From positions 1-7,617 of the forward strand of contig JACOVN010000128.1 in NCBI GenBank assembly GCA_016177315.1: a stretch of DNA of 7,617 nt, read 5' to 3'. This document shows, piece after piece, positions 2,822-6,808 of the stretch; within the stretch, counting starts at the first letter, position 1, and every line of letters begins with the position of its first letter. Both the position numbers and the translations under genes were made by a program. The notes beneath the pieces are model-generated. The model did no database searches. It was not told where the DNA came from and was given only the letters and a program-made list of their open reading frames with translations. This stretch comes from Candidatus Woesearchaeota archaeon (GTDB taxonomy: Archaea; Nanobdellota; Nanobdellia; Woesearchaeales; UBA12501).

Positions 2822-5104
2822 ATGGCACTGTTTAAGAAAAAGAAAAAAGGAGAGGAAGGGCAGGTCGAGGAAACGCCTGCAACAGCCAGGAAGAGAGAGA
2901 TAGAGGATTTGATGCAGCGCTACAAGGAGAAGCTGAAGGAGGAGCTGGAGACGACTTCTCCTATTGCAACAGAAATCGAGTTGAAGCCCATTCCCTCTAT
3001 CGAGTACCAGCAGTTCAAGTCTGCGTATCTACCAAAGCGACTGAATTGGTATGAAAAGGGTTGCAGCCTGGCTGAACGGATTCTCCGGATAACACCCGAC
3101 CAGAAGAAAACTGCTGGCTACGAGGAAGCCATCGATATCAGCCACCTCGAAATCACTCCTGCAGGCGCAGTAAGCTTTGCCATTATCTTCCCTGTCCTGT
3201 TCATGGTCCTGGGAAGCTTGGTCAGCTTCTTCCTGCTCCAGTCCAATTTCTTCCTGGCCTTCTTCCTCATCATCGGTTTATCCCTGATTCTTCCGCTAGC
3301 CAAGCTTCCTTTCTTCATTGCGAATGGCTGGAGAATGAAGGCATCCAACCAGATGGTATTGTGCATTTTCTATTTGGTAACGTATATGCGGCATACCTCC
3401 AATTTAGAGCGGGCAGTGGAATTTGCCTCCACGCATTTAACTCCCCCGCTAAGCCTGGATCTGAAAAAGGTGCTGTGGAATGTCGAGACAGGAAGGTATG
3501 ATACTATTAAGGAAAGTTTGGATATGTACCTCAACACGTGGAGGAGGTGGAATCTGGAATTCATCGAAGCAATGCACCTCATTGAAAGTTCTCTGTATGA
3601 GCCTTCTGAAGAGAGCAGAATTGGCCTATTGGACAAATCCCTGAACGTGATTCTGGAGGAGACCTATGAGAAAATGCTCCACTATGCCCAGAACTTGAAG
3701 GGCCCTATTACCATGTTGCACATGCTGGGCATTATCCTCCCCATCCTCGGCTTAGTCATACTTCCCTTGGTCGTGAGCTTCATGTGCGGCGTGCAATGGT
3801 ACCATTTGGCTGCCCTCTACAACATCGCCTTGCCCGTTGGCTTGTACTATCTCGGAAAGAGCATTCTCTCGAAGCGACCAACAGGATATGGAGATACGGA
3901 CATTGCTGAGCAAAATCCGGAATTGAAGAAGTACCGGAATTTTATCATCCATCTTGGAAAAGCAGAGATCAAAGTCAAGCCATTGTTCATTGCACTCTTC
4001 GTTGGCTGCTCCTTGGTGCTGTTCGGTTTCCTCCCCATCCTGCTCCATTGGTTCAATCCAGGCTGGGACATGATCCTTACCACGGAGAATGATGTGAAGA
4101 CGATTTACTCCTACACAGATCAGGATGCTAGCTATTACTTCTTAGAGTACAAGGAATCGAAAGGCTGTCCGCCTGGTGAGGGGAATGTGGGAACGATTCT
4201 GGGACCTTATGGTTTAGGTGCAACACTCTTCAGCCTGCTGGTAATCTTAGGTGCAGCGGCCGGGATTGGATTGTATTGCAAGCTGAAATCCCAGAATGTC
4301 ATTAAGATCAGGGCAAGGGCAAAACAGCTAGAACAGGAATTTGCCTCTGCATTGTTCCAATTAGGCAACAGGCTTGGAGATGGCTTGCCAGCAGAAATTG
4401 CCTTTGGCAGGGTTGCAGAGGTGATGGAAGGCACCATGTCAGGGAATTTCTTCAACATTGTTTCCTCCAATATTTCGAGGCTCGGCATGAGTGTCGAACA
4501 AGCTATCTTTGATCCCCAGCATGGAGCCATTGTCTATTACCCCTCTCCGGTTATTGATAGCTCGATGAAAGTGTTAGTGGAGAGCGCCAAGAAAGGACCG
4601 AGGATTGCTGCTCAGGCCTTGCTGAATGTTTCCCGATACATCAAGGAAATCCATCGGGTAGACGAGCGATTAAAAGATTTGATGTCGGACATCATTTCTT
4701 CTTTGCAGAGCCAGATCAAGTTCTTGACACCTGCCATAGCAGGCATCGTGATTGGCCTAACTTCCATGATCACCACTATTCTTGGAAAGCTGAGCGGTCA
4801 ATTAGCGAGGTTGGAAAGTCCGCAAGCAGGAGCAGGCCTAGCAGATGTCACTTCTTTATTTAGTGATGGTATCCCTGCCTATTTCTTCCAGATTGTGGTT
4901 GGAATTTATGTGGTGCAGATTGTCTATATTATGACCATTTTGGTGAATGGCATTGAGAATGGAGAGGATAAACTGAATGAGCGATTCTTATTGGGAGTGA
5001 ATACCCTCAAGAGCAGCTTCATTTATGTACTCATTGCCATGGTAGTGATTATGCTGTTCAACATCATTGCAGCCAGCATTCTGGGGACGATTGGGGGGTT
5101 TTAG
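2822..5104 (+). CDS. T2SSF-type membrane platform protein (FlaJ/TadC/PilC-like), double domain
   Basis: This is the inner-membrane platform on which the cognate ATPase acts to build or retract a pilus-like filament or drive secretion. The 760-aa product starts with a lysine-rich cytosolic tail (FKKKKKG) and a charged, helix-prone region (20-45). About nine membrane segments follow, near 117-138, 143-165, 297-320, 327-345, 386-406, 464-485, 632-655, 686-708 and 731-753. Two cytosolic helical blocks (about 172-295 and 490-630) sit between membrane pairs, the duplicated T2SSF architecture. Parallel landmarks are LERAVEFASTHL near 195-206 and DGLPAEIAFGRV near 520-531. An extracytoplasmic loop of about 55 residues (407-462), rich in Tyr and Asp with Cys449, lies in the middle. 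The ATPase gene upstream is the likely partner. At 760 aa it is longer than archaellum FlaJ (about 550-600). The ATG at 2822 lacks a Shine-Dalgarno sequence. Confidence 0.88.
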   Translation: MALFKKKKKGEEGQVEETPATARKREIEDLMQRYKEKLKEELETTSPIATEIELKPIPSIEYQQFKSAYLPKRLNWYEKGCSLAERILRITPDQKKTAGYEEAIDISHLEITPAGAVSFAIIFPVLFMVLGSLVSFFLLQSNFFLAFFLIIGLSLILPLAKLPFFIANGWRMKASNQMVLCIFYLVTYMRHTSNLERAVEFASTHLTPPLSLDLKKVLWNVETGRYDTIKESLDMYLNTWRRWNLEFIEAMHLIESSLYEPSEESRIGLLDKSLNVILEETYEKMLHYAQNLKGPITMLHMLGIILPILGLVILPLVVSFMCGVQWYHLAALYNIALPVGLYYLGKSILSKRPTGYGDTDIAEQNPELKKYRNFIIHLGKAEIKVKPLFIALFVGCSLVLFGFLPILLHWFNPGWDMILTTENDVKTIYSYTDQDASYYFLEYKESKGCPPGEGNVGTILGPYGLGATLFSLLVILGAAAGIGLYCKLKSQNVIKIRARAKQLEQEFASALFQLGNRLGDGLPAEIAFGRVAEVMEGTMSGNFFNIVSSNISRLGMSVEQAIFDPQHGAIVYYPSPVIDSSMKVLVESAKKGPRIAAQALLNVSRYIKEIHRVDERLKDLMSDIISSLQSQIKFLTPAIAGIVIGLTSMITTILGKLSGQLARLESPQAGAGLADVTSLFSDGIPAYFFQIVVGIYVVQIVYIMTILVNGIENGEDKLNERFLLGVNTLKSSFIYVLIAMVVIMLFNIIAASILGTIGGF

Positions 5105-5145: not shown

Positions 5146-5199
5146 AAAATGATATCGCATTGTGGTACTGGAGCGAAGCGAAAGTACCACGATCATTTT
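5146..5199. repeat. Nested inverted repeat between convergent transcription units
   Basis: The inner arms GTGGTACT (5162-5169) and AGTACCAC (5183-5190) pair perfectly around a 13-nt purine-rich loop. The outer arms AAAATGAT (5146-5153) and ATCATTTT (5192-5199) also pair perfectly, leaving eight unpaired bases on the left and one on the right. It lies 42 nt after the platform-gene stop and 25 nt past the tRNA 3' end. The position suggests a bidirectional terminator or mRNA 3'-end stabiliser. A small repeated element is the alternative. Confidence 0.6.
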
Positions 5200-5207
5200 G
5201 ATTAAAC

Positions 5208-5218: not shown

Positions 5219-5237
5219 TTTTATGGGGCAGGGGAGA

Positions 5238-5257
5238 TTTTCCAGGGTCAAGCCCTT
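5238..5257 (-). other. tRNA intron 5, T loop (after position 59), 20 nt
   Basis: The T stem GGGAG/CTCCC encloses 27 nt instead of seven, so 20 nt must be removed to leave TTCAAAT. Exon TTCA (5263-5260) pairs with intron TGGA (5244-5241), including one T-G pair. The inner helix is only GGG/CCC with loop CTTGA, and the bulges are runs of A, so the cut cannot be placed to the base: shifts of one or two positions give the same mature sequence. Position 59/60 is a known non-canonical archaeal tRNA intron site. Confidence 0.82.
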
Positions 5258-5272
5258 TTTGAACTCCCGACA

Positions 5273-5301
5273 TTCCATACCGGAGAGGTTCCTCTCCGAT
5301 T
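5273..5301 (-). other. tRNA intron 4, variable loop (after position 44), 29 nt
   Basis: The BHB motif is canonical. Exon CCGT (5307-5304, positions 39-42) pairs with intron ATGG (5278-5275), including one G-T pair. The 5' bulge is GGA (5303-5301, cut after GG) and the 3' bulge is AAT (5274-5272, cut after AA). The inner helix is nine pairs, ATCGGAGAG (5300-5292) with CTCTCCGGT (5287-5279), closed by a GAAC loop. Removal leaves a normal five-base variable loop, GTGTC. Confidence 0.88.
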
Positions 5302-5308
5302 CCACGGT

Positions 5309-5328
5309 TCCGGGGAGCTCCTGGCTCA
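5309..5328 (-). other. tRNA intron 3, canonical position 37/38, 20 nt
   Basis: This is the usual archaeal intron site, directly 3' of the anticodon. The intron holds a GAGC (5327-5324) / GCTC (5318-5315) hairpin with loop CAGGA. Pairing of exon CTG (positions 32-34) with intron CGG (5312-5310) gives only a three-pair central helix with one T-G pair, so the BHB is relaxed. The cut could shift by one base: loop CTGAAGA if the intron is 5328-5309, CTGAAGT if it is 5327-5308. The 20-nt length is fixed by the seven-base loop. Confidence 0.8.
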
Positions 5329-5338
5329 CTTCAGCCGT

Positions 5339-5360
5339 CTGAGCTGCATTGTTCATGCAA
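5339..5360 (-). other. tRNA intron 2, anticodon stem (after position 27), 22 nt
   Basis: The BHB motif is canonical. Exon GAGC (5366-5363, positions 22-25) pairs with intron GCTC (5344-5341). The 5' bulge is ACT (5362-5360, cut after AC) and the 3' bulge is AGA (5340-5338, cut after AG). The inner helix is TGCAT/ATGCA (5359-5355 and 5349-5345) with loop GAACA. Removal creates the CACGG strand that pairs fully with CCGTG. The intron GCTC copies the 5' D-stem strand, so the BHB and the D arm compete for the same exon bases. Confidence 0.9.
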
Positions 5361-5384
5361 GTGCTCTCCCAGGTTGAGCTACTG

Positions 5385-5414
5385 TTATGGTCTTAGAGCA
5401 TTTCTCTCTAAAAT
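5385..5414 (-). other. tRNA intron 1, acceptor stem (after position 4), 30 nt
   Basis: The BHB motif is canonical. ATGG (5420-5417: two leader bases plus G1 and G2) pairs with intron CCAT (5390-5387). The 5' bulge is GGA (5416-5414, cut after GG) and the 3' bulge is AAC (5386-5384, cut after AA). The inner helix TTTTAGAG (5413-5406) pairs with CTCTAAGA (5398-5391), including one T-G pair. Removal joins GGGG to CAG, and the result pairs 7/7 with the 3' acceptor strand. Without removal only three of seven acceptor pairs form. Confidence 0.9.
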
Positions 5415-5456
5415 CCCCATTGTGCTCAGCCGTATTCGGTGGATTGGAGAACAAGC

Positions 5457-5464
5457 ATTTATAA
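5457..5464 (-). promoter_or_regulatory. TATA box (TTATAAAT) of the tRNA, overlapping the permease stop codon
   Basis: On the minus strand TTATAAAT is centred about 42 nt before G1 of the tRNA. This predicts transcription start near 5434 and a leader of roughly 16 nt. The box includes the TAA stop codon of the permease gene (5461-5459). It allows the tRNA to be transcribed on its own, although read-through from the permease gene is also possible. Confidence 0.65.
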
Positions 5465-6808
5465 TGTTTTTGCTTTCCCCTTTACCTCTCCAAACCTTCT
5501 CACGACAGCATAAAGTACGAACCCAAGGATAGAATATGCTATTCCTCCCAGAATGACTTTGGGCTGGAGATTTATGGCAAGGAAAAGAACTGCGAGAATA
5601 CCCAAGAATGGAAGCACGGCAAATCTCCCGATGTTCAAGGGGGCTTTAAAGGGCCGCTTTACCTTAGGCAATTTGTACCGCAATACGATCAAGGCAAGAT
5701 TCACAATAACAAAAGAAAGGAATATTCCAAAGTTGCTGAACTCTGCCACTAAATCAATCTTCCTCGGCAGAATGAAGAGGAAGGTTAAGAGCATGGAGGC
5801 AAAGACAGCAATATAGGGTGTTCTCCTGCTTACGTGAACCCAGGTAAAGGGCTTCAATAATTTATATTCGTGGGACATGCCATACAATGTCCTGGAAGCA
5901 GCAACCAGCGACATGAGGATGGTATTGCCGGTAGAGAAAAGCGCAATGACTGCCAAGAGAACGAAAGCATTGCTCCCGAGAATAGCAGCAGCAACATCTG
6001 CTAATGGCGCAGCAGATTTTCCTAATGTTTCCCAGCCAACCACGCTTACGGCAGCCATGGCAACCAGAATATAGAGCAAGGTGGAAATGGCAATGGAAAG
6101 CAAGAGTGCCCGTGGAATAGTCTTGGTAGGATTCTTCGTTTCCTCAGATAATTTAACGACACTCTCAAAGCCGATGTAGGCAAAGAATACCAAAGCAGCA
6201 GCATGGAATACTCCAGAAAAGCCCTGCGCCATTTCCATATAATTAACTTTTCCAAAATAGGGCAAGGCGATGAAGATGATAATAAAAAGGCCGACGGTTT
6301 CCAGAATAGTAAAAATAACGTTCATCCATTTGGAATCCTTGATGCCATGAAAATTGATGAAGCTAAAGAAAAAAGTAGCAAGCAGAGCAATGAGCAGTAT
6401 ACTATTGGTTCCAAATAATTTTGAGAAATAGCCTGCAAAGCCCAGAGCAACAGCTGCGCCAGTAATGATCTGTGCTAGCACTGCAAGATAGCCAACGAAA
6501 AAGGCAATGGCTCTTCCAAAGGCATGTTCGGCATAGACATACTCTCCAGCATCAGAAGGAAAGATAGAGCTTAGCTCTGCATAGCTGATGCCAGTAAAAA
6601 CCGCTGCTAAGGCAGAGAGGAGGAAGGAAAGCCAGACAGCATTGCCAGCAGTTCCTGCTGCCATGCCAATCAGAACATAAATGCCAGCTCCAAGGATAAT
6701 GCCCACACCACAGGCAGTTGCCTGGAAGAGGTTGAGGTCTCTCCTTAAGGTCAGTTTCTTTTTGGAGTGAAGGAATCTCTTCCGGTGATGCTCTCGGTGC
6801 TCTTTCAT
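5459..6808 (-). CDS. APC-superfamily amino acid permease
   Basis: This cytoplasmic-membrane transporter takes up or exchanges amino acids or polyamines using an ion gradient or antiport. The 449-aa product has a basic N-terminal tail (many His, Lys and Arg in 1-25) and about 12 hydrophobic segments. Family marks are the TM1 substrate-binding stretch GVGIILGAGIYVLIG (34-48, with the unwound GAG), the TM6 stretch FFAYIGFESV (208-217) followed by SEETKNPTKTIPRA (221-234), and the SRTLYGMSHE loop (305-314). Length and motifs fit an intact APC permease (TC 2.A.3). Substrate cannot be assigned. The ATG at 6808 is preceded by a purine-rich stretch too close for a good Shine-Dalgarno, so translation is probably leaderless. 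It lies 51 nt after the nitrite reductase gene and 40 nt before the tRNA on the same strand. A DPANN-type organism with few biosynthetic genes would depend on such uptake, but that is inference. Confidence 0.92.
   Translation of the reverse strand: MKEHREHHRKRFLHSKKKLTLRRDLNLFQATACGVGIILGAGIYVLIGMAAGTAGNAVWLSFLLSALAAVFTGISYAELSSIFPSDAGEYVYAEHAFGRAIAFFVGYLAVLAQIITGAAVALGFAGYFSKLFGTNSILLIALLATFFFSFINFHGIKDSKWMNVIFTILETVGLFIIIFIALPYFGKVNYMEMAQGFSGVFHAAALVFFAYIGFESVVKLSEETKNPTKTIPRALLLSIAISTLLYILVAMAAVSVVGWETLGKSAAPLADVAAAILGSNAFVLLAVIALFSTGNTILMSLVAASRTLYGMSHEYKLLKPFTWVHVSRRTPYIAVFASMLLTFLFILPRKIDLVAEFSNFGIFLSFVIVNLALIVLRYKLPKVKRPFKAPLNIGRFAVLPFLGILAVLFLAINLQPKVILGGIAYSILGFVLYAVVRRFGEVKGKAKTL

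What the first reader, a model, noticed from the sequence alone, without database searches (positions are those of the whole stretch)
5224..5418. A tRNA-Phe gene split by five introns
Seen in sequence: one contiguous minus-strand locus yields a complete 74-nt tRNA only after five segments (30, 22, 20, 29 and 20 nt, 62% of the gene) are removed, with 7/7 acceptor, 4/4 D, 5/5 anticodon and 5/5 T-stem pairs. Known: archaeal tRNAs can carry several introns, with up to three per gene reported in Thermoproteales as far as I recall. Inference: this gene exceeds the described range and would be missed or called a pseudogene by default tRNA searches.
Basis: partly seen in the sequence, partly recalled or inferred. 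Interest (0 to 1): 0.95.

Follow-up and report, generated by a model that had tools for sequence, protein, structure and literature searches.

The report
Five-intron tRNA gene with splicing leader
A tiny uncultured archaeon carries a phenylalanine tRNA gene cut into six pieces by five short inserts, two more than the surveys I read report for any archaeal tRNA gene, and a short stretch just ahead of the gene likely folds back onto it to help remove the first insert.

Summary
Confirmed and extended. The minus strand 5418-5224 reads as a perfect 74-nt tRNA-Phe(GAA) only when five segments (30, 22, 20, 29, 20 nt; positions 4/5, 27/28, 37/38, 44/45, 59/60) are removed. Of 32 removal combinations only the full one gives tRNA-Phe, and 0 of 1000 shuffles score near it. 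An intronless gene at the same locus in a same-family genome matches the spliced product at 72 of 74 bases, which fixes the exons. Introns 1, 2 and 4 have complete 4-bp central BHB helices; intron 5 has 3 of 4 pairs, intron 3 only 2 of 4. Of 154 distinct tRNA-Phe genes parsed in the order, one other has four introns and no other has five; the papers I read put the archaeal maximum at three. New here: 13 of 13 genes with the 4/5 intron carry a 5' leader complementary (7-8 of 8 bases) to their own D-arm, against 3 of 141 others at that place, and their TATA boxes lie about 12 nt further upstream. I infer that the leader builds the outer helix of the first splice site, so intron 1 would be cut before leader removal. 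There are no RNA data; splicing is predicted.

The parts
5458..5465 (-). TATA-like box ATTATAAA, 47 nt upstream of G1 (predicted promoter)
   Evidence: relatives with the 4/5 intron: median 46 nt (box recognised in 11 of 13); others: median 34 (101 of 141)
5424..5431 (-). 5' leader element GGCTGAGC, complementary (7 of 8) to the gene's own D-arm positions 10-17
   Evidence: (pair probabilities 0.88-1.0 except the C/A mismatch)
5415..5418 (-). exon 1 (tRNA positions 1-4, GGGG)
5385..5414 (-). intron 1, position 4/5, 30 nt; central helix ATGG/CCAT uses leader bases -2,-1 and G1,G2 (4 of 4), inner stem 8 bp
5361..5384 (-). exon 2 (positions 5-27); D-arm 5' strand 5379-5372 can pair with the leader in the precursor
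5339..5360 (-). intron 2, position 27/28, 22 nt; central helix GAGC/GCTC 4 of 4, inner stem 5
5329..5338 (-). exon 3 (positions 28-37, with anticodon GAA)
5309..5328 (-). intron 3, canonical position 37/38, 20 nt; weak central helix (2 of 4), inner stem 4 bp
5302..5308 (-). exon 4 (positions 38-44)
5273..5301 (-). intron 4, position 44/45, 29 nt; central helix CCGU/AUGG 4 of 4, inner stem 9 bp
5258..5272 (-). exon 5 (positions 45-59)
5238..5257 (-). intron 5, position 59/60 in the T-loop, 20 nt; central helix 3 of 4, inner stem 4; cut placed within an A run
5224..5237 (-). exon 6 (positions 60-73); no CCA encoded
2822..5104 (+). 760-aa protein beside a type II/IV secretion ATPase gene, convergent with the tRNA gene (about 120 nt between them); its homologues mark the syntenic locus in relatives
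   Evidence: no Pfam family of its own; FlaJ-like is my label from recall

Best explanation
The minus-strand locus 5418-5224 is predicted to be the working tRNA-Phe(GAA) gene of a woesearchaeal (DPANN) archaeon, whose six exons are likely joined after the tRNA splicing endonuclease cuts out five BHB-type introns, the first of them with the help of a transcribed 5' leader that would pair with the gene's own D-arm. In the precursor the D-arm is pulled apart: its 5' strand pairs with the leader (outer helix of the intron-1 site), its 3' strand GAGC pairs with a GCTC copy inside intron 2, and the 3' anticodon strand pairs with intron 4 (shown as complementarity and in the predicted fold; pairing in the cell is inferred). 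Removing introns 1, 2 and 4 would free these strands to form the cloverleaf, after which introns 3 and 5 would sit on ready-made anticodon and T stems. Because the intron-1 site uses leader bases -2 and -1 and the leader helix, intron 1 would have to be cut before RNase P removes the leader (inferred). The same positions are used, in other combinations, across the order, with rapid turnover; this gene holds five of them at once.
For: Perfect 74-nt cloverleaf only with all five removed; 0 of 1000 shuffles. Intronless orthologue beside the same neighbour gene in G308 (same family), 72 of 74 identical to the spliced product. Each of the five positions is used in other genes of the order: 37/38 in 62, 59/60 in 32, 4/5 in 13, 27/28 in 9, 44/45 in 3 of 154 distinct genes, window included. 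Central BHB helices 4/4 for introns 1, 2, 4 and 3/4 for intron 5. Leader:D-arm match of 7-8 of 8 starting at -12 to -15 in 13 of 13 genes with the 4/5 intron, 3 of 141 without; D-arm base 16 is C opposite leader G in 9 genes, A opposite U in 4; the 13 genes lie in 9 families. TATA boxes of 4/5 genes lie at median 46 against 34 nt. The precursor fold is stable (z -3.5, 0 of 200 shuffles as stable), with the leader helix at probability 0.88-1.0 (one mismatch) and the intron 2 and 4 central helices at 0.87-0.92. A splicing endonuclease gene is present, in two pieces at contig ends.
Against: Intron 3 has only 2 of 4 central pairs, among the weakest of 62 introns at 37/38 (6 of 62 have 2 or fewer). 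In the unspliced fold the central helices of intron 1 (probability about 0.1), 3 and 5 (about 0) are not favoured, and intron 3 pairs with T-arm exon bases instead. The leader 8-mers were picked by best match, so the pair counts lean towards the helix; in the untrimmed alignment 77% of leader-helix cells pair and 13 of 500 shuffles reach the percentage paired, 49 of 500 the covariation score. Only two pairs change on both sides, a number that shuffles reach in 245 of 500. Statistics are not corrected for kinship. Only (alpha-beta)2 and epsilon2 endonucleases are said to cut relaxed sites efficiently (PMC6379350, passages), whereas I find a single alpha-type gene in this family. No transcript data.
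Confidence: 0.85

Rival explanations
1. The leader complementarity is not a splicing guide but a by-product: a conserved promoter or start-site element, or a leftover of a duplicated D-arm segment, in genes that inherited leader and 4/5 intron together; intron 1 would be cut with the ATGG/CCAT helix alone.
For: Leader and intron sequence are both conserved among the 13 genes, so they may simply be inherited as a block; three genes have the leader match without the 4/5 intron (L222, L225, L239).
Against: 13 of 13 against 3 of 141; the leader tracks D-arm base 16 (G with C in 9, U with A in 4); TATA boxes are shifted upstream, which would put the element inside the transcript; the three exceptions have the element at -12 or -13, as expected if an intron was lost and the leader stayed.
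Confidence: 0.2
2. The locus is a decaying pseudogene or an assembly chimera, and another tRNA-Phe gene serves the cell.
For: The assembly is 79% complete and in 167 contigs, so a second copy cannot be ruled out; intron 3 has a poor BHB.
Against: All 21 stem pairs intact, 72 of 74 identity to an intronless orthologue at the same locus, TATA-like box and T-rich trailer, a tRNA-Phe within 3 kb of the same gene in 28 of 80 named loci, many of which end at a contig end, single match of the Phe D-arm pattern in the assembly.
Confidence: 0.05
3. Fewer than five introns are spliced, or the region around introns 3 and 4 is joined differently from the model.
For: Weak intron-3 motif; in the fold, intron 3 pairs with T-arm bases instead.
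Against: Keeping any one intron leaves no tRNA-Phe call; the spliced anticodon arm and variable loop of the window are identical to those of L083, which has only the 37/38 intron.
Confidence: 0.08
4. The gene is expressed as separate pieces and trans-spliced (split tRNA).
For: Leader pairing with a tRNA strand resembles the leader pairing of split tRNA halves.
Against: All six exons lie in order on one strand within 195 nt, with a TATA-like box upstream of exon 1; promoters between exons were not looked for.
Confidence: 0.02

Closest known systems
Three-intron tRNA genes of Thermoproteales (e.g. Pyrobaculum calidifontis tRNA-Glu(UUC), P. islandicum tRNA-Pro(UGG); PMC4390854, passages)
   Same: Several short BHB introns at canonical and non-canonical positions in one contiguous tRNA gene
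   Different: Five rather than three; a DPANN lineage; an acceptor-stem 4/5 intron whose site uses the 5' leader
Split tRNAs of Nanoarchaeum equitans and Desulfurococcales (PMC3218864, PMC4033280, passages)
   Same: Leader sequences outside the mature tRNA pair to build a BHB
   Different: Here the pairing is in cis between the 5' leader and the D-arm, and the gene is not split
Multi-intron tRNA genes of algae (Cyanidioschyzon merolae tRNA-Ile(UAU) with three, abstract in the listing of PMC9602550; another alga with two and three per gene in a passage of PMC4090602)
   Same: Introns in D-, anticodon and T-arms of one gene
   Different: Eukaryotic; three introns; no leader helix mentioned in what I saw
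tRNA-Phe genes of other genomes of the order (this work)
   Same: Shared intron positions, closely similar mature tRNA, in part the same locus
   Different: 0 to 4 introns; one gene (L170) has four (4/5, 27/28, 37/38, 46/47)

Membership tests
Archaeal BHB-intron tRNA genes | Removal of the introns restores a complete cloverleaf | tested here: met
Archaeal BHB-intron tRNA genes | Each splice junction lies in two 3-nt bulges around a 4-bp helix | tested here: inconclusive
   met for introns 1, 2, 4 (4/4), nearly for 5 (3/4), not for intron 3 (2/4)
Archaeal BHB-intron tRNA genes | tRNA splicing endonuclease in the genome | tested here: met
   PF01974 C-terminal piece C42:1-156 and PF02778 N-terminal piece C87:51-245, one gene broken by contig ends as I read it
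Archaeal BHB-intron tRNA genes | Spliced RNA and excised introns seen | not testable with these tools
   no RNA data
Broad-specificity endonuclease ((alpha-beta)2 or epsilon2) expected for relaxed sites | A second (beta) subunit or fused three-unit enzyme | tested here: not met
   one PF01974 match in each of 9 of 10 family genomes, none in the tenth; two intact frames read are 175 and 176 aa, a third 242 aa from its first start; second PF02778 matches in G304 and G306 are far below cut-off; a strongly diverged beta subunit would be missed
Split or permuted tRNA | Halves encoded apart or in reversed order | tested here: not met
   six exons in order on one strand within 195 nt
Group I or group II self-splicing introns | Catalytic RNA core of 200 nt or more (recalled) | tested here: not met
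   20-30 nt introns; no Rfam match to such a family in the window

The most novel reading that the evidence does not exclude
A new cis-acting splicing device: in woesearchaeal tRNA-Phe genes with an acceptor-stem intron, a short 5' leader is kept and transcribed as a splicing guide that base-pairs with the tRNA's own D-arm to build the splice site, forcing splicing before leader removal; the window gene adds this to four further introns, two of which copy D- and anticodon-arm strands, giving an obligatory stepwise refolding from an alternative fold to the cloverleaf, and the largest number of introns known in one tRNA gene.
Probability: 0.6. Interest if true: 0.88.

Novelty: new variant of a known kind. 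Interest (0 to 1): 0.8.

Why it matters
If spliced as predicted, it raises the reported intron load of an archaeal tRNA gene from three to five and shows that an essential tRNA can be invisible to common finders. It opens two testable questions: whether an untranslated leader can act as an intron-specific guide in cis, linking splicing order to RNase P processing; and how an organism with apparently one alpha-type endonuclease cuts relaxed sites that are said to need two-subunit or three-unit enzymes. The order-wide series of 0 to 5 introns at shared positions, with possible relic leaders, offers a natural record of tRNA intron gain and loss.

Tried and rejected
Considered and dropped: (1) Other boundaries: by hand, the 44/45 placement of intron 4 beats 43/44 because it gives a 4/4 helix and a 9-bp inner stem; cutting intron 3 at 36/37 or 38/39 pairs no better. 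(2) A first pair count used a structure string three columns off and is discarded; replace it. (3) One search used three wrong intron offsets (its product differs from the tRNA); one search replaces it. (4) Parser artefacts: L102 (intronless, terminal misparse, left out of the counts), L158 (counted as three, more likely one long 59/60 intron), L238 (1/2) and L250 (36/37 plus 37/38) are doubtful; L215 and L170 needed the looser threshold, in which L215 then has one intron. (5) 12 D-arm matches gave no accepted Phe parse: nine other isotypes or unresolved (L104, L109, L110, L113-L117, L202), two at contig ends (L118, which shows a 4/5-like intron, and L163), and L102. (6) Not every D-arm match was fetched: second matches in several genomes and many GGCAGAGC-type matches were skipped, one match cut by a contig end (G052) was skipped, one search used a narrower pattern, and the listing was cut short. 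(7) 182 of 352 order genomes had no match to the D-arm pattern; genes with D-arm introns or other D-arms are invisible to this survey. (8) Gain against loss was not resolved: a quick tree of the neighbour protein for 29 loci needs at least 11 changes for the 37/38 intron and 8 for 59/60, so turnover is fast, direction unknown.

Full report
What is there. The window is contig C40 of a 908,737-base, 167-contig assembly that is 79% complete. Homologues of its 760-aa protein (2822-5104) come mostly from genomes named Woesearchaeota or Nanoarchaeota, with a few labelled Euryarchaeota, DPANN, archaeon or once Patescibacteria (80 loci); same-family genomes G300 and G302 carry tRNA genes identical to those of named Woesearchaeota records. 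So this is a DPANN archaeon of that order. On the minus strand, about 120 nt from that gene's end and just downstream of an amino-acid permease gene (5459-6808), lies the reported locus.

Removing 30, 22, 20, 29 and 20 nt leaves a 74-nt tRNA with all 21 stem pairs formed and anticodon GAA. A parser written for intron-bearing tRNA-Phe finds this as its best solution (17.8; next 13.2). With the D-arm kept and the flanks shuffled, 60 of 1000 shuffles gave any parse, best 7.1. ARAGORN reads tRNA-Phe in 1 of the 32 ways of removing subsets of the introns, namely when all five are out; four other subsets give calls of other identities in at least one of two modes. On the raw sequence ARAGORN and the Rfam tRNA model see nothing here.

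The boundaries are confirmed by relatives. G308, in the same family, has an intronless tRNA-Phe beside the same gene (60% identical over 447 residues); it equals the window's spliced product at 72 of 74 positions. The window's spliced anticodon arm and variable loop are identical to those of L083, which has only a 37/38 intron.

Survey. I searched 352 genomes of the order with a Phe D-arm pattern; 170 matched. From most, not all, of the matches I fetched loci, joined them with the 80 named loci, and parsed 181 genes, 154 of them distinct: 60 without introns, 49 with one, 26 with two, 17 with three, one with four (L170), one with five (the window); 12 matches gave no accepted parse. A few parses are doubtful (see Tried and rejected), none of them at four or five. 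Positions used: 37/38 in 62 genes, 59/60 in 32, 46/47 in 17, 4/5 in 13, 27/28 in 9, 30/31 in 8, 36/37 in 7, 53/54 in 5, 44/45 in 3, others in 5. Within the window's family of 10 genomes, eight have a match: 5 introns in the window, one in five genomes (4/5; 59/60 twice; 37/38 twice), none in two. In the neighbour-protein tree of 29 loci, near sisters L016 and L084 differ in which intron they hold.

The leader. All 13 genes with the 4/5 intron have an 8-nt element, starting 13 to 15 nt upstream of G1, that pairs at 7 or 8 positions with their own D-arm bases 10-17; of 141 other genes, 3 do at -12 to -15, and 6 of 139 anywhere from -26 to -2. In the trimmed alignment the leader helix is paired in 95% of cells; for leader helix and central helix together it is 91.7%, against 12.8 to 44.8% for slid versions. 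Base 16 of the D-arm is C opposite G in 9 genes and A opposite U in 4. Cells paired, doubly changed cells and covariation score exceed all 500 shuffles; the number of doubly changed pairs does not (245 of 500 reach it). The 8-mers had been picked for their match, so this leans towards the helix. The untrimmed alignment gives 77% for the leader helix and 79.5% for both against 21.8 to 43.6% slid; 13 of 500 shuffles reach the percentage paired and 49 the covariation score. The 13 genes spread over 9 families. TATA-like boxes are recognised in 11 of 13 and lie at a median of 46 nt; in the others in 101 of 141, median 34 (Mann-Whitney p 3e-5, not corrected for kinship). The three exceptions L222, L225 and L239 have the element at -12 or -13 without the intron, which I read as relics of intron loss; in L225 the box looks close by eye, so the element may no longer be transcribed.

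How it would work. Taking cuts after the second base of each 3-nt bulge (recalled geometry), central helices are 4/4 for introns 1, 2 and 4, 3/4 for intron 5 and 2/4 for intron 3. Intron 1's helix ATGG/CCAT uses leader bases -2 and -1. Intron 2 carries GCTC, a copy of the D-arm 5' strand; intron 4 carries AUGG, which binds the 3' anticodon strand. The predicted precursor fold (-78.9 kcal/mol, z -3.5) contains the leader helix and the central helices of introns 2 and 4 at high probability, and not the cloverleaf; it does not favour the central helices of introns 1, 3 and 5, and pairs intron 3 with T-arm exon bases. I infer that 1, 2 and 4 go first, that the cloverleaf then forms, and that 3 and 5 follow on the anticodon and T stems. 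Intron 3 remains the weak point.

The enzyme. Nine of ten family genomes have one match to the catalytic endonuclease domain, the tenth (79% complete) none. Two intact frames are 175 and 176 aa, a third 242 aa from its first start. The nearest solved chain is 3iey_A, an entry listed for Nanoarchaeum equitans in PMC6379350 (passages), whose enzyme has a second subunit. No second subunit was found here, which points to a homotetramer, the type described there as narrow; the tension with relaxed sites is unresolved. In the window's genome the gene lies in two pieces at contig ends.

What is known. Published statements put the archaeal maximum at three introns per tRNA gene: PMC8450103, PMC4390854, PMC3293823 and PMC4033280, all seen as passages. 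Searches for 'four introns' with pre-tRNA and archaea (0 papers), Woesearchaeota with tRNA and introns (4 papers, listing), DPANN with tRNA introns (1; 15 of 19 listed), multiple introns with BHB (16 of 17 listed) and leader with BHB (15 and 12 of 17 listed; passages of PMC3218864) showed me no report of an archaeal tRNA gene with more than three introns or of a leader paired with its own D-arm. I saw listings and passages, not whole texts, and the library lacks most subscription papers and all preprints. So the kind (BHB-intron tRNA gene) is known; the number and the leader are new as far as I could check.

Noticed in passing
L287 (G000:C53, at a contig end): A tRNA-Leu-like gene with several introns, cut by the contig end; its leader ACCAGG pairs with CCTGGT of its own D-arm around an intron near position 8/9 (my hand reading; the pairing is in the predicted fold), and its TATA box is about 64 nt upstream: possibly a second leader-guided gene in another isotype.
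   Followed up: partly
L295 (G000:C142, near contig start): Another heavily interrupted tRNA-like gene (acceptor GAGGGGG/CCCCCTC, more than 100 extra nt) not found by the Rfam model.
   Followed up: no
G000 whole assembly: The Rfam tRNA model finds only 12 tRNA places (11 over cut-off) in a 79% complete genome, so many tRNA genes may be hidden by introns.
   Followed up: partly
L170 (G103): A four-intron tRNA-Phe (4/5, 27/28, 37/38, 46/47), also above the published maximum.
   Followed up: yes
L004 1501-1584 and L011 1501-1615: Two tRNA genes with GTGCRA instead of GTTCRA in the T-loop, i.e. G where U55 is nearly universal.
   Followed up: no
L008, L009, L012, next to tRNA genes: A palindrome AAATTTTTNNNAAAAATTT sits beside three tRNA genes of this genome; only the 35 held loci of this genome (window included) were looked at.
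   Followed up: no
window 5155-5200: A hairpin-forming stretch GTGGTACT...AGTACCAC about 35 nt downstream of the tRNA, flanked by AATGAT/ATCATT.
   Followed up: no
L131 (G308) compared with L130 (G307), same genus: Two genomes of one genus have quite different tRNA-Phe sequences, and G308's is nearer to the window's (72/74): possible exchange or replacement of the tRNA gene within a conserved locus.
   Followed up: partly
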